64,000 bases of DNA. Source: Shewanella vesiculosa. Its GTDB lineage: Bacteria; Pseudomonadota; Gammaproteobacteria; Enterobacterales; Shewanellaceae. Numbering within the stretch: the first letter of the stretch is position 1; the number at the start of each line of letters is the position of its first letter. The translations under genes and the position numbers were made by a program. Of the stretch, positions 42,446 to 45,576 are shown piece by piece. Location of the stretch: NCBI RefSeq assembly GCF_021560015.1, contig NZ_CP073588.1, forward strand, positions 4,076,501 to 4,140,500. The letters run 5' to 3'. The notes under the pieces were generated by a model that saw only the letters and a list, made by a program, of their open reading frames with translations, was not told the DNA's origin and did not search any database.

Positions 42446-42946
42446 ATCGCTTGCTTCCAACATTGTTGTTTTAATATTTGAGCTCAAAAGTATAAGGCGA
42501 TAACCAAAGCAAACCAATGGTAGATAATGGTAAAAACAGATTTTGTTACAAATCAACTTTTCAATTTCAGTTAATCTTAAGGTTTTTGTTGGTTCAATTT
42601 TAATAGATAGAAACTTCTGGACTCAAATGGCCCAATCCAAAAAACAATGTTCACAACTGAGCTTTCTCGATAAATGTGGCGGAGGGATAGCTTGCTTACA
42701 TAAAGAGGAACCCATGGGTTAAAAGTCCTATCTTTCGTCAAATGAAAAAAGGCTCATCATTGCTGATGAGCCCTTCGTCTTTAATGCGGCGAATCGGGGA
42801 GGTGTTTCCTATTTCTAAGACGCCTGTATACGCGGGTTGCAGGGGTATGGAATGAGTAAATTGTCTATCTAATGTCGCCATAAAAATGATGTTCAGTTAG
42901 AAATGCTAAAGCTGAATCATAGTTATAGTTATTGAGCCATAGTCTC
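42446..42946. other. Intergenic region with a tRNA-Ser 3'-end relic
   Basis: Promoter region of the POT gene, then an isolated copy of the tRNA-Ser tail with its own hairpin (42672-42775), then about 170 bp leading to the cassette genes. Apart from the relic nothing was recognised. Confidence 0.5.
42672..42775 (-). repeat. tRNA-Ser 3'-end/terminator repeat, distant copy
   Basis: It carries the tRNA tail (plus strand TGTGGCGGAGGGATAG) followed by GCTTGCTT, an AGGAACCCATGGG segment and AGTCCTATCTTTCG, the same order as the tandem copies at 45170-45480. A hairpin GGCTCATCA-TTGC-TGATGAGCC lies beside it (42749-42773). It stands 2498 bp from the nearest tandem copy, with the cassette genes between. 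Confidence 0.8.
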
Positions 42947-42957
42947 TTGTTATGTGT
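42947..42957 (-). repeat. attC-like right end after the PLDc_N-like gene
   Basis: Minus strand ACATAACAAG overlaps the stop codon TAA, as at the start of attC sites. The partner half is not clear, so the site is probably truncated or decayed. Confidence 0.4.
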
Positions 42958-43153
42958 TGTTTTCTGGGAGTTCTTTGATTACAAAAAAGTAATAAACAAA
43001 ATACCCTATCCAGGATATAAAAAACGACATTAGAAACCAAATTACTTTCTGTGCACCTTTTGCTTTCTTAGAAACTAAAGCTAGTATCCAAGGCAACATC
43101 CATATTATAAAAACAGGAATAATCAAAATTTGCCAAATACTTATACCTCCCAT
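42950..43153 (-). CDS. Small membrane protein, PLDc_N-like (cassette gene)
   Basis: 67 residues with two membrane segments (IWQILIIPVFIIWMLPWILAL and VIWFLMSFFISWIGYFVYYFF), a short basic loop between and an acidic tail. The layout and W-I-G-Y-x-x-Y motif resemble the phospholipase D-nuclease N-terminal (PLDc_N) family found alone in many bacteria. AAAAGGAA is about 9 bp before the ATG. The stop codon lies in an attC-like sequence, so it reads as an integron cassette gene. Role unknown. Confidence 0.75.
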   Translation of the reverse strand: MGGISIWQILIIPVFIIWMLPWILALVSKKAKGAQKVIWFLMSFFISWIGYFVYYFFVIKELPENNT

Positions 43154-43185
43154 AATAAATTCCTTTTTAATTGAAACTACAAAAA

Positions 43186-43232
43186 CATAATGCTTAAAGC
43201 AGCTGCACGTCAGTTGCCTTTACTTGTTAGTG
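43186..43232 (-). repeat. attC-like site after the alpha/beta hydrolase
   Basis: Minus strand CACTAACAAG at the gene stop, then GTAAAG, an inner GC-rich part and CTTTAAGC, ending CATTATG (one base off GTTATG). About 47 bp, short and imperfect. Confidence 0.5.
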
Positions 43233-44033
43233 TTTGTCCAGCTTTTGCATTAAGGCTAAAAGCTCATTTACAACTAGCTCAGGTTCATCCACCTGAACAA
43301 AATGGCCACTTTTTTCTGTCAGAACAGTTTTCCCCTGTGGAAATGCACCAGCCCAAGTTTGCCACAGTTCCCCCCACATTTTTCTGCCTTCATCGGTAAA
43401 AAACAAGTTAGCAGGATTCTTTGTTTTCCTGACAGAGGCAATAACCGTTACGGGTATATCTTTGATCTGTGGATAATCAGGAAGCGGTCTTTTACTCCAA
43501 AAATCGAGATATTGGTTTGACATACCATTAGCCATATCATCTAGCTTGATTTGAGCAATTTCTCGGTTCGCTTTTTCTAAATCAATGGCCCGCAATATAT
43601 CAATATCATGTTCAGAGGACGGATCTAACAATAAGAGCGCTTTTATTTGTTTTGGATAAGCAGTTGCAAAGTCTCTTGCGATGTTGCCACCATATGAATG
43701 AGCGACCAAAATGACAGGCTGTTTAATATTCAAATTAACTAAAAGTTCACTAGCGTAGTCTGCATAATCATTCGACGTAAAATGACGCTTAATAACTGTT
43801 GATTTGCCATTACCAACTCTAGAATAGCGAATGACCGTTGCATGCTCTGCTATTCGGTTGAAAACAGTATCCCAATCAGACATGCTTGCACCACCACCAG
43901 CTTCCAATAAAACGGTATGCTTACCCAGCCCAGCAACTTCGTATTCAAGTTGAAACTCATTAACGTTAATCAGGTTAGGTTGTGCCGCTAGTGAGAACGA
44001 TAATGCAATGCCAATTAATGAAATGAATTTCAA
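43227..44033 (-). CDS. Secreted alpha/beta hydrolase (cassette gene)
   Basis: 268 residues with a signal peptide (MKFISLIGIALSFSLAAQ). The fold is the standard alpha/beta hydrolase: HTVLLEAGGGASMSDWD around the oxyanion region, nucleophile elbow VAHSYGGNIA with Ser near residue 114, an Asp in LLLLDPSSEHD or later, and the catalytic His in KSGHFVQVDEPE near 246. Substrate unknown. GAGGAG is in its leader just after the previous attC end, and its own stop sits in an attC-like site, so it reads as a cassette gene. Confidence 0.85.
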   Translation of the reverse strand: MKFISLIGIALSFSLAAQPNLINVNEFQLEYEVAGLGKHTVLLEAGGGASMSDWDTVFNRIAEHATVIRYSRVGNGKSTVIKRHFTSNDYADYASELLVNLNIKQPVILVAHSYGGNIARDFATAYPKQIKALLLLDPSSEHDIDILRAIDLEKANREIAQIKLDDMANGMSNQYLDFWSKRPLPDYPQIKDIPVTVIASVRKTKNPANLFFTDEGRKMWGELWQTWAGAFPQGKTVLTEKSGHFVQVDEPELVVNELLALMQKLDKH

Positions 44034-44050
44034 ATCTGCTCCTCAAAACA

Positions 44051-44149
44051 GTAACGCCCCTCTAATAAGTGAACCATGTGCTGGCGGGCGATTTGCTCAG
44101 CAAATGGTATGACAGACATGGTAAATCTTAATTTAGAGTCTTGTTATGC
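44051..44149 (-). repeat. attC-like recombination site (best preserved)
   Basis: About 99 bp. Plus strand starts GTAACGCCCC and ends TTGTTATGC. Nested complementary arms: TCTAATAAG against CTTAATTTAGA, CCATGT against ACATGG, and an inner ATTTGC-TCA-GCAAAT hairpin. The end overlaps the last 22 bases of the upstream gene. This is the layout of a VCR-like attC site. Confidence 0.72.
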
Positions 44150-44577
44150 ATTTTAAGTGCAACCCACTTTATGGGGGTTCGAATAAATACCCAGCAGAGC
44201 GATGCTAATAGTAGGCCAGAAAAGTAAGCACTAAGTGCTAACTGCTCATGATAGCTAGCACCATCGACCTCAATCTTTTTCAACAGGTTATTACCTTTAA
44301 GGTACTCCCCCTTTATTGATTTACCACGTATTTCATCTCTGTACAATTCGCAAAAATTGTATTTTTTAGTCATGAAATAGTCTGTGCCATTTTTTGAAAA
44401 TCGAACTGAATAGGTACTAAACTTTCCATTTAGTTCACATGAGATAGCGCTATTACTTAAATCTATTTCTTCGATATTTTCATCTGACCAGACATGAAAA
44501 AACCAAACCGATATACTTAAAAGTATTACAGCTAAAATGACAATATCGATTTTATGATTAATCCAAAATTTGGTCAT
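44128..44577 (-). CDS. Hypothetical two-pass membrane protein (cassette gene)
   Basis: 149 residues. Membrane segments at about 10-28 (IVILAVILLSISVWFFHVW) and 114-135 (ALSAYFSGLLLASLCWVFI) enclose a soluble loop with two Cys. GTGGGTAA stands just before the ATG, right after a GTTATGC cassette boundary, and the stop lies inside the attC-like site at 44051-44149. No named family; the position says integron cassette. Confidence 0.65.
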   Translation of the reverse strand: MTKFWINHKIDIVILAVILLSISVWFFHVWSDENIEEIDLSNSAISCELNGKFSTYSVRFSKNGTDYFMTKKYNFCELYRDEIRGKSIKGEYLKGNNLLKKIEVDGASYHEQLALSAYFSGLLLASLCWVFIRTPIKWVALKMHNKTLN

Positions 44578-44588
44578 TTACCCACTTT

Positions 44589-44642
44589 GCATAACAGATT
44601 ATTGAACGGCTCTCCCGATAAAGTCCGCTATTCAAGTTATTG
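44589..44642 (-). repeat. attC-like site upstream of the first cassette gene
   Basis: Plus strand GCATAAC (44589) to GTTATTG (44636), with inner arms TTGAACGG and CCGCTATTCAA. About 54 bp, imperfect. It would mark the end of a further, now gene-less cassette at higher coordinates. Confidence 0.5.
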
Positions 44643-45132
44643 ATTTATATCATCCTACATTCTCTATGTCTTTGATGTAAAGTGATAAAATACTCTCAAC
44701 ATTCCAACTCAACCGAGGTTGCGCGTTAATGTCGTTTGAAAAATAAGCGATAATATTTATTTGCAATATTATCAATCAATTATACTTTTCGAAATAAATC
44801 TACATTACGACTTTAGGCTTACCTAATGAGTGGTTTGATTTTACTTAAGCAAAATCTATTTATACCTGTATATAAAATCAGCTCATTCGGTTAAGCACAA
44901 TCTAGCCAGTAAATAATGGTTTATATAGAAAAGTACCCAATACTTCGAGTAACTATTTCTCAATAAATAAAGTCAGCATGTATGCCTCAGCGATTACACT
45001 GAATTACATTTAGGAATGCGGCATATAGCGTTAAATGAATACATAAACTATGTATAGAATGAATTAACACAAACTGAAAACATTAAAATTCTCGTGTAAT
45101 TACGCAGTAATCAAAAAAGCTGATTCTATAAC
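44643..45132. other. AT-rich region between cassettes and tRNA repeats
   Basis: 490 bp, very AT-rich, with no ORF of convincing length. It may be an empty or decayed cassette, and may provide the promoter for the three cassette genes. Confidence 0.4.
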
Positions 45133-45162
45133 AAAAAAGCCCCATCATTGCTGATGAGACTT
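45133..45162 (-). terminator. Hairpin of tRNA-Ser repeat unit 3
   Basis: Plus-strand AAGCCCCATCA-TTGC-TGATGAGACTT; the minus strand ends in a T6 run. It closely resembles the hairpin beside the distant copy at 42749. Confidence 0.7.
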
Positions 45163-45234
45163 CCCCGTTGAATGTGGCGGAGTGATAGCTTGCTTGTAAT
45201 AAATAGGAACCGTGGGTTCAAATGTTACAGACAC

Positions 45235-45268
45235 AAAAAAGCCCTATCATTTCTGATAAGGCTTTTTA
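45235..45268 (-). terminator. Hairpin of tRNA-Ser repeat unit 2
   Basis: AAAAAGCCCTATCA-TTTC-TGATAAGGCTTTTT; nearly identical to the hairpin of unit 1 at 45336. Confidence 0.8.
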
Positions 45269-45335
45269 TTTGAATGTGGCGGAGGGATAGCGATCTTTTA
45301 TAAATAGGAACCCTGGATTCAAATGTTACAGACAC

Positions 45336-45368
45336 AAAAAAGCCCTATCATTTCTGATAAGGCTTTTT
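45336..45368 (-). terminator. Hairpin of tRNA-Ser repeat unit 1
   Basis: AAAAAGCCCTATCA-TTTC-TGATAAGGCTTTTT, with A and T runs on both sides. Confidence 0.8.
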
Positions 45369-45445
45369 CATTGAATGTAGCGGAGAGATAGCTTGCTTGT
45401 AATAAAAAGGAACCCGTGGGCTCAAAGTCCTATCTTTCGCCCAAT

Positions 45446-45477
45446 AAAAAGGCCCGCTATAAATAGCGGGCCTTTTT
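45446..45477 (-). terminator. Terminator directly after tRNA-Ser
   Basis: AAAAAGGCCCGCTAT / ATAGCGGGCCTTTTT, a strong symmetric hairpin 10 bp after the tRNA CCA end. Confidence 0.9.
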
Positions 45478-45486
45478 ATTTGAATG

Positions 45487-45576
45487 TGGCGGAGGGATAG
45501 GGATTTGAACCCTAGAACGGGATAAACCGTTGCCGGTTTTCAAGACCGGTGCATTCGACCACTCTGCCATCCCTCC
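45487..45576 (-). tRNA. serT: tRNA-Ser(UGA)
   Basis: 90 nt on the minus strand including an encoded CCA. The acceptor stem GGAGGGA pairs with TCCCTCC before discriminator G. The anticodon stem-loop ACCGGTCTTGAAAACCGG gives anticodon TGA (UGA, reading UCN Ser codons). A long variable arm typical of serine tRNAs (GCAACGGTTTATCCCGTTC) precedes the T-arm AGGGTTCAAATCCCT. Its 3' end is reiterated downstream in several relic copies. Confidence 0.95.

What the first reader, a model, noticed from the sequence alone, without database searches (positions are those of the whole stretch)
42947..44642. Integrase-free integron cassette cluster (CALIN) with attC-like sites
Three genes in the same orientation have stops placed in TAACAA-type sequences and leaders that begin after GTTATGC, GCGTTAC or ATTATG. 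The 44051-44149 site shows the full nested-arm layout of an attC. The gene products (membrane proteins and a hydrolase) are typical cassette cargo. A cassette cluster beside a tRNA repeat array is an unusual pairing and could hold phage-defence or stress genes not yet described.
Basis: partly seen in the sequence, partly recalled or inferred. Interest (0 to 1): 0.75.

Follow-up and report, generated by a model that had tools for sequence, protein, structure and literature searches.

The report
Integrase-less integron in a Shewanella chromosome
Three genes sit as mobile gene cassettes behind an integron landing site (attI) whose integrase gene is missing, and related Shewanella genomes carry up to fourteen such attI-like copies, of which most that were examined lie away from any integrase gene.

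Summary
Three minus-strand ORFs are bounded by integron core sites, and 44149-44049 is a genuine attC (113 bits, E 1.3e-26 with a model that left the window out). Cassette A, 99% identical, sits behind a different attI in another genome of the genus; identity runs from core to core and is lost beyond both. The other two attC sites are degenerate: no model hit, no significant fold. Cassette A was found in 4 of 129 genomes; none of the three proteins matches a defence family.

Here intI is absent, and both integron-type integrase genes of this genome look incomplete.

Following the platform gave the surprise: 34 of 129 genomes hold 232 matches to this attI (up to 14 each) but only 28 intI matches. 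Of 68 copies examined in 11 complete genomes, 63 lie away from intI, with left flanks in 44 groups; a good part head real cassettes. CALINs and SALINs are known in Shewanella, and one attI-headed CALIN is in print; my searches found no report of dispersal on this scale. How platforms spread, and whether an IntI serves them in trans, is untested.

The parts
44589..44595 (-). attI core GTTATGC (G|TT between 44595 and 44594); start of cassette A
   Evidence: from here on cassette A is 99% identical to L088 (G090), whose upstream attI differs; among attI copies identity is 91% in the 10 nt before the core and 28% over 40 nt after it (37 copies listed by hand of 58 with a core)
44592..44711 (-). 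attI site (R2 model match, 96.4 bits)
   Evidence: matching sites lie within some hundred bp of intI, divergent, in relatives
44652..44681 (-). candidate cassette promoter Pc, TTTACA-18-TAGGAT
   Evidence: 9 of 12 positions; promoter-like sites in the stretch are not above shuffles, 7 against 10.5; TTTACA-(17 to 19)-TAGGAT kept in 29 of 68 attI copies
44866..44881 (+). LexA box CTG-N10-CAG, at the place where it precedes intI in intact integrons
   Evidence: kept in 15 of 15 aligned sequences; 255-320 nt from the core in 24 of 68 copies, 5 of 5 intI-linked
44590..44979 (-). whole intI-less platform (attI + Pint region); homology with the G013 copy runs to 45089
44055..44594 (-). cassette A
   Evidence: similarity to L088 runs from attI core to attC core and is lost beyond both
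44128..44577 (-). orfA, 149 aa, no Pfam or PADLOC family
44049..44149 (-). attC of cassette A, R'' 44149-44143, R' 44055-44049
43191..44054 (-). cassette B
   Evidence: 80.8% identical DNA in a Pseudoalteromonas plasmid record of 826 kb over query 610-1456 = window 43209-44055, about the cassette
43227..44033 (-). orfB, alpha/beta hydrolase, 268 aa
   Evidence: Pfam PF00561, 4.2e-18
43186..43233 (-). degenerate or truncated attC of cassette B; core reads ATT instead of GTT
   Evidence: no model hit; fold z -0.4
42950..43153 (-). orfC, 67 aa, hydrophobic (weak DUF6064 match below cut-off)
42807..42966 (-). conserved end of array, from R''-like ACATAACAAGAG
   Evidence: 70-74% identical stretch downstream of orphan attI copies in G090, G106 and G051, after a different last ORF in G090 and G106
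42661..42791 (.). degenerate tRNA-Ser tail repeat, low side of the array
45131..45480 (.). degenerate tRNA-Ser tail repeats, high side of the array
45487..45576 (-). tRNA-Ser (tga)

Best explanation
The locus is a headless integron: an attI platform (candidate cassette promoter, attI and the LexA-box intI promoter region) that has no intI, followed by three cassettes captured by integron recombination. An IntI joined the attC of cassette circles to the attI core G|TT, placing orfA, orfB and orfC in one direction behind Pc. SHOWN: core boundaries, intact attC of A, homology of the platform to intI-linked attI, absence of intI, other ORFs at the same platform in G090. INFERRED: transcription from Pc; that the genome cannot now move the array (both its integron-type intI matches look incomplete); that the platform arrived or survived as an intI-less unit, because copies like it lie at many loci. 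It sits in a tRNA-Ser insertion hotspot.
For: attC model 113.3 bits, E 1.3e-26; fold and covariation. Same cassette behind a different attI in G090, similarity running from core to core. Same tRNA-Ser platform in G090 with other ORFs. attI identified by linkage: 5 of 68 copies examined in 11 complete genomes lie divergently next to intI, LexA box in 5 of 5. Exact 7-nt cassette-end box followed by AA downstream of 16 of 53 orphan attI cores (the window's own is one of the 16), against a mean of 2.0 and maximum of 8 in 1000 shuffles. No integron integrase among the 13 matches of this genome lies in the window; the two loci better than 1e-30 are 2807291-2808109 (profile 1-274 of 315 only) and 3800260-3801201 (three separate pieces).
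Against: attC B and C are not recognised, so two of three cassettes rest on core boxes, on the cassette-wide match to Pseudoalteromonas (B) and on the shared end (C). In the G090 copy at the same locus the core is not GTT. 37 of 53 orphan cores have no exact cassette-end box followed by AA within 2.6 kb; 10 of 68 attI copies have no GTT core. The shuffle control skips draws that return a copy's own box, which lowers it somewhat. No recombination or promoter activity was measured.
Confidence: 0.87

Rival explanations
1. Cassettes inserted one by one at non-classical genomic sites (attG/SALIN insertion), the upstream sequence being just genome.
For: SALINs are common in Shewanella (PMC9229058, section 3.4 read); attG insertion is reported (Loot 2024, seen only as a citation in PMC11023631 and as mentioned in PMC12901181).
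Against: 120 to 390 bp upstream of the core are shared with other copies, including those next to intI; identity just before the core is 91%.
Confidence: 0.06
2. A complete integron stood here and intI was deleted in place; the other copies are independent relics of the same kind.
For: LexA box and Pint region remain; some orphan copies in other genomes keep a short intI 5' piece (L230 27 aa, L231 19 aa, L238 20 aa).
Against: No intI remnant found in the window; two different intI-less left segments are each shared by several copies; left flanks of 68 copies form 44 groups, hard to explain by in-place loss alone.
Confidence: 0.3
3. The array was carried in by a tyrosine-integrase island using the tRNA-Ser 3' end, its integrase since lost, the integron part being cargo.
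For: Array bracketed by tRNA-Ser tail repeats; the same locus in G045 holds a Phage_integrase ORF plus an attI copy, and in G122 a Phage_integrase ORF, an attI copy and the tail repeat lie together.
Against: No island integrase or intact att pair seen between the repeats in the window. Only 2 of the other 67 copies share the window's flank group. Not exclusive with the best explanation.
Confidence: 0.3
4. Ordinary chromosomal genes of the genus with chance core-like motifs.
For: Core motifs are short; the arms-only scan gives many hits and misses site A.
Against: attC homology and core-to-core similarity with another genome; cassette A found in 4 of 129 genomes.
Confidence: 0.02

Closest known systems
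CALIN / SALIN elements of Shewanella (PMC9229058, section 3.4 read in full, other passages by search)
   Same: cassettes with attC away from intI, common in the genus: CALINs of two to six attC sites, single ones as SALINs
   Different: what I read does not describe an attI platform at the head of these clusters; only one attC is recognised here
CALIN with its own attI in Shewanella prophage M16-3 (PMC9892861, passages of section 3.3 read)
   Same: an attI at the start of an intI-less cassette array, beside a complete integron
   Different: one case, another attI sequence (near that of S. oneidensis, as quoted there), inside a prophage; here 232 matches to a different attI type in 34 genomes
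Delta-attI-type cassettes of class 1/2 mobile integrons (PMC12901181, passages read)
   Same: attI copies in places other than beside intI; attI-ORF-attI layouts, like the tandem run in G070
   Different: those are mostly 14-18 nt pieces (one of 244 nt, one complete attI1) replacing attC within mobile integrons; here about 120 nt or more, dispersed in chromosomes
SOS-regulated chromosomal integrons (PMC3108266, passages read)
   Same: LexA box upstream of intI
   Different: here the box also remains in 19 of 63 intI-less copies

Membership tests
Integron gene cassette | attC with R''/L''/L'/R' arms at the 3' end (cassette A) | tested here: met
Integron gene cassette | attC arms for cassettes B and C | tested here: not met
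   no model hit, folds not better than shuffles; the model covers one attC subtype only
Integron gene cassette | moves as a unit with ends at the GTT cores | tested here: met
   cassette A against L088; B matches Pseudoalteromonas over about the cassette only
CALIN | no integron integrase nearby | tested here: met
   nearest integron-type match better than 1e-30 at 3800260-3801201, over 300 kb away
CALIN | at least two attC sites recognised (rule in PMC9024848) | tested here: inconclusive
   one strong site; IntegronFinder's own model was not available
Complete integron | intI beside attI | tested here: not met
attI site | lies between intI and the first cassette in homologous integrons | tested here: met
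   5 of 68 copies examined in 11 genomes; more by coordinates
attI site | recombines with attC under IntI | not testable with these tools
   needs an assay
SOS-regulated Pint | LexA box CTG-N10-CAG upstream of the intI position | tested here: met
   44866-44881; binding not testable here
Anti-phage defence cargo | match to a known defence family | tested here: not met
   PADLOC, 0 of 3 proteins at E 0.1

The most novel reading that the evidence does not exclude
Many Shewanella species run a distributed integron: intI-less attI/promoter platforms multiply through the chromosome as landing pads, each holding its own cassettes, and are filled by one integrase acting in trans, from the same cell or delivered on a mobile element. 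The platforms behave as a non-autonomous mobile family in their own right.
Probability: 0.3. Interest if true: 0.78.

Novelty: new variant of a known kind. Interest (0 to 1): 0.52.

Why it matters
Integrons are taught as one integrase, one attI, one array. Here attI matches outnumber integrase matches about 8 to 1 across 34 genomes (232 to 28, recount), and in 11 of those 34 no intI reaches 1e-60 (weaker or broken intI are not counted). IntegronFinder does not detect attI outside class 1 (PMC9024848, passage read), so such platforms would be filed as CALINs or SALINs and their heads overlooked. It makes testable how integrase-free cassette clusters arise and whether they stay in play.

Tried and rejected
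Arms-only attC scan: 43 sites at -11 kcal/mol or better in 128 kb of strand, while known attC sites score from -4.5 to -12.4 (3 of 26 not at all) and site A is not listed at -9; not specific, dropped. Core pattern CAATAAKCTGTTA with two mismatches: 532 hits against 408 for the reversed control; useless. Rfam at gathering scores found only the tRNA. A named relative of orfA: none in genome contigs, so the genus name comes from the finding; the neighbouring M3 peptidase finds Shewanella records best at 70-71%, Pseudoalteromonas at 66-67%. Cargo of other attI copies: 48 proteins scanned, 47 behind attI copies and orfA; defence-type models (GajA, PtuA, Old, AriA and others) match a few, but the table counts families, not proteins, so I claim no enrichment. 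The first-ORF picker found an ORF for 52 of 68 copies and missed the window's own. I first took L020:4518-5378 for an endonuclease by eye; Pfam gives it no family at 1e-5, dropped.

Limits of the counts. One search scored 2 candidates a genome and one search scored 5, so absences there are not firm. Searches scored 150 candidates of 2146 and 3344; one search scored 27 a genome with stricter filters. The 10 genomes were picked by me among single-contig assemblies that had matches; 60 of their 75 matches (the best by E-value) were fetched and examined with 8 own copies. The R2 model was trained on 24 copies, some counted later. In one search intI-linked means at least 100 aa at 40% identity to one intI type; a distant type would be missed. 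In one search two own copies were flagged intI by a 64-aa, 31% match; Pfam makes the ORF a phage integrase and I count them as orphan. Flank groups need 250 aligned bases, so diverged orthologous places can count apart. One of 27 attC rows (L033, same stretch as L116) was dropped before the model.

Full report
Observation. The window is G000:C1:4076501-4140500 of a single-contig genome. Three ORFs run on the minus strand: orfA 44577-44128, orfB 44033-43227, orfC 43153-42950. Pfam gives an alpha/beta hydrolase for orfB, a sub-threshold DUF6064 match for orfC and nothing for orfA. No PADLOC family matches any of the three.

The attC site. DNA of 42880-44640 was compared with 129 genomes of the genus (2 candidates scored per genome): 62 of 129 have a match, and in 52 of the 62 (my hand count of the listed rows, own genome and G090 included) a match covers the stretch that is 44146-44052 here, at 74-95% identity apart from the own copy and the longer G090 match. 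I extracted such copies (27 rows), aligned 26 without the window and built a covariance model. RNAalifold put its outer helices on TAAC/GTTA and on seven bases just inside, the layout of attC. In the window the model hits 44153-44046 at 113.3 bits, E 1.3e-26; the next best, 15.3 bits and E 0.26, lies elsewhere. In the whole genome this site and a weak one (2805210, E 0.15, near an integrase) come up, 150 of 2146 candidates scored. Changes on both sides occur at 4 of 21 pairs (7 of 500 shuffles reach that), the covariation score exceeds 500 of 500 shuffles, the number of pair types does not stand out (102 of 500), and cells paired fall from 96% to 24-48% when the partner is slid. The bottom strand folds with z -3.09, 0 of 200 shuffles as good. 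The sites after orfB and orfC fail both tests.

Cassettes by comparison. In G090 cassette A is 99% identical but sits behind a different attI, by eye the type that in our own genome lies at L009 7880-7940 beside an incomplete intI. Similarity runs from the attI core to the attC core (one inserted G just before it) and is lost beyond both, within the few bases that all cores share. G089 and G034 have 90-91% copies with a decayed attC. Cassette B DNA is 80.8% identical in a Pseudoalteromonas record over window 43209-44055. Cassette A was found in 4 of 129 genomes, so there is no sign of core DNA.

The missed head of the array. Window 44592-44935 or parts of it recur elsewhere in the genome; the ORFs behind these copies differ where I listed them. 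In relatives the sequence lies divergently next to integron integrase (G106 3135781 with intI from 3136115; G072 269685 with 270019; G051 1091022 with intI ending 1090805). It is therefore the attI of this integron type with its intI promoter region; a LexA box CTG-N10-CAG at 44866-44881 is kept in 15 of 15 aligned sequences. No intI is here. The two best integron-integrase loci of the genome are far away and look incomplete, and neither locus carries this attI type; each has weak or by-eye attC sites beside it.

Dispersed attI platforms. A sequence model of 24 copies finds 8 copies in this genome at E below 1e-14, one at 2.4e-5 and weaker ones. In the genus 34 of 129 genomes have 232 matches at 1e-6, up to 14 each. 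The same 34 genomes have 28 intI matches at 1e-60 and 11 of them none (both recounted). In a sample of 295 genomes of the order 12 match, all of this genus. Ten single-contig genomes chosen for having matches gave 75. I examined the best 60 of these and 8 own copies: 58 of 68 have the GTT core; 5 are intI-linked, 63 are not; the LexA box is at the proper distance in 24 (5 of 5 linked, 19 of 63 orphan). Left flanks fall in 44 groups. Identity is 91% in the ten bases before the core and 28% over 40 bases after it (37 copies that I listed by hand).

Do orphan platforms hold real cassettes? A cassette carries, at the start of its attC, the reverse complement of its own first seven bases. I asked whether that box, followed by AA, occurs 101-2600 nt downstream: 16 of 53 orphan copies with a core and 4 of 5 intI-linked; with boxes shuffled among the 53 the mean is 2.0 and the maximum 8 in 1000 rounds. 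An earlier, partly overlapping set of 50 copies, linked ones included, gave 18 of 43 against a mean of 1.3 (maximum 6). So a good part hold cassettes; for the other orphans this test is silent.

Ends of the units. In 9 of 50 copies the LexA box is followed, where intI should start, by a conserved 22-aa ORF; nine aligned copies (L030 to L037 and L039) share the left segment that holds it, in some without the open frame. The window, G090 and G013 share another left segment. Some orphans keep a stub of intI. A right end of about 150 bp (window 42807-42966) recurs downstream of orphan attI in G090, G106 and G051, with shorter 28-29 nt matches in two other loci. In G051 an orphan is sister to the linked attI of the same genome (support 100/89, few columns). 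This fits repeated copying of platforms from integrons; the mechanism is open.

Place in the chromosome. The array is bracketed by degenerate tRNA-Ser tail repeats. The same locus holds the platform with other ORFs in G090, a different ORF in G070, and a Phage_integrase ORF with an attI copy in G045. I read it as an insertion hotspot.

Literature. Shewanella CALINs and 115 SALINs are described (PMC9229058, section 3.4 read). A Shewanella prophage with an attI at the head of a CALIN is described (PMC9892861, passages read). Partial attI sites act as cassette ends in mobile integrons (PMC12901181, passages read). IntegronFinder does not detect attI outside class 1 (PMC9024848, passage read). Paper searches showed me no report of dispersed intI-less attI copies; I saw mostly listings, and the library holds open-licence papers only, so this is weak evidence of absence.

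Verdict. The finding is real and, as a cassette array, a new member of a known kind; the intI-less platform and its multiplication make it a variant worth a specialist's time.

Noticed in passing
window 42661-42791 and 45131-45480: Degenerate repeats of the tRNA-Ser 3' end flank the array; two other tRNA-Ser places of the genome (317762, 903371) carry similar tandem tails.
   Followed up: partly
L020 (G000:1484000-1503500): Three attI copies in one run, interspersed with three copies of the same transposase-domain ORF.
   Followed up: partly
G070:C1:3777523-3784127: Tandem attI-ORF340-attI-ORF248-attI-ORF436: attI copies stand where attC would be expected between cassettes.
   Followed up: partly
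L021 (G000:2180000-2193000): A phage-integrase ORF of 342 aa ends 25 bp before an attI copy; a group II intron reverse transcriptase split over two ORFs lies after the second attI cassette.
   Followed up: partly
left segment of orphan platforms, e.g. L144, L146, L149, L022: Conserved 22-aa ORF behind the LexA box, at the intI start position, in 9 of 50 copies. Whether it is translated is unknown.
   Followed up: partly
G000:C1:2807291-2808109 and 3800260-3801201: Two integron integrase genes at loci with other attI types, both apparently incomplete.
   Followed up: partly
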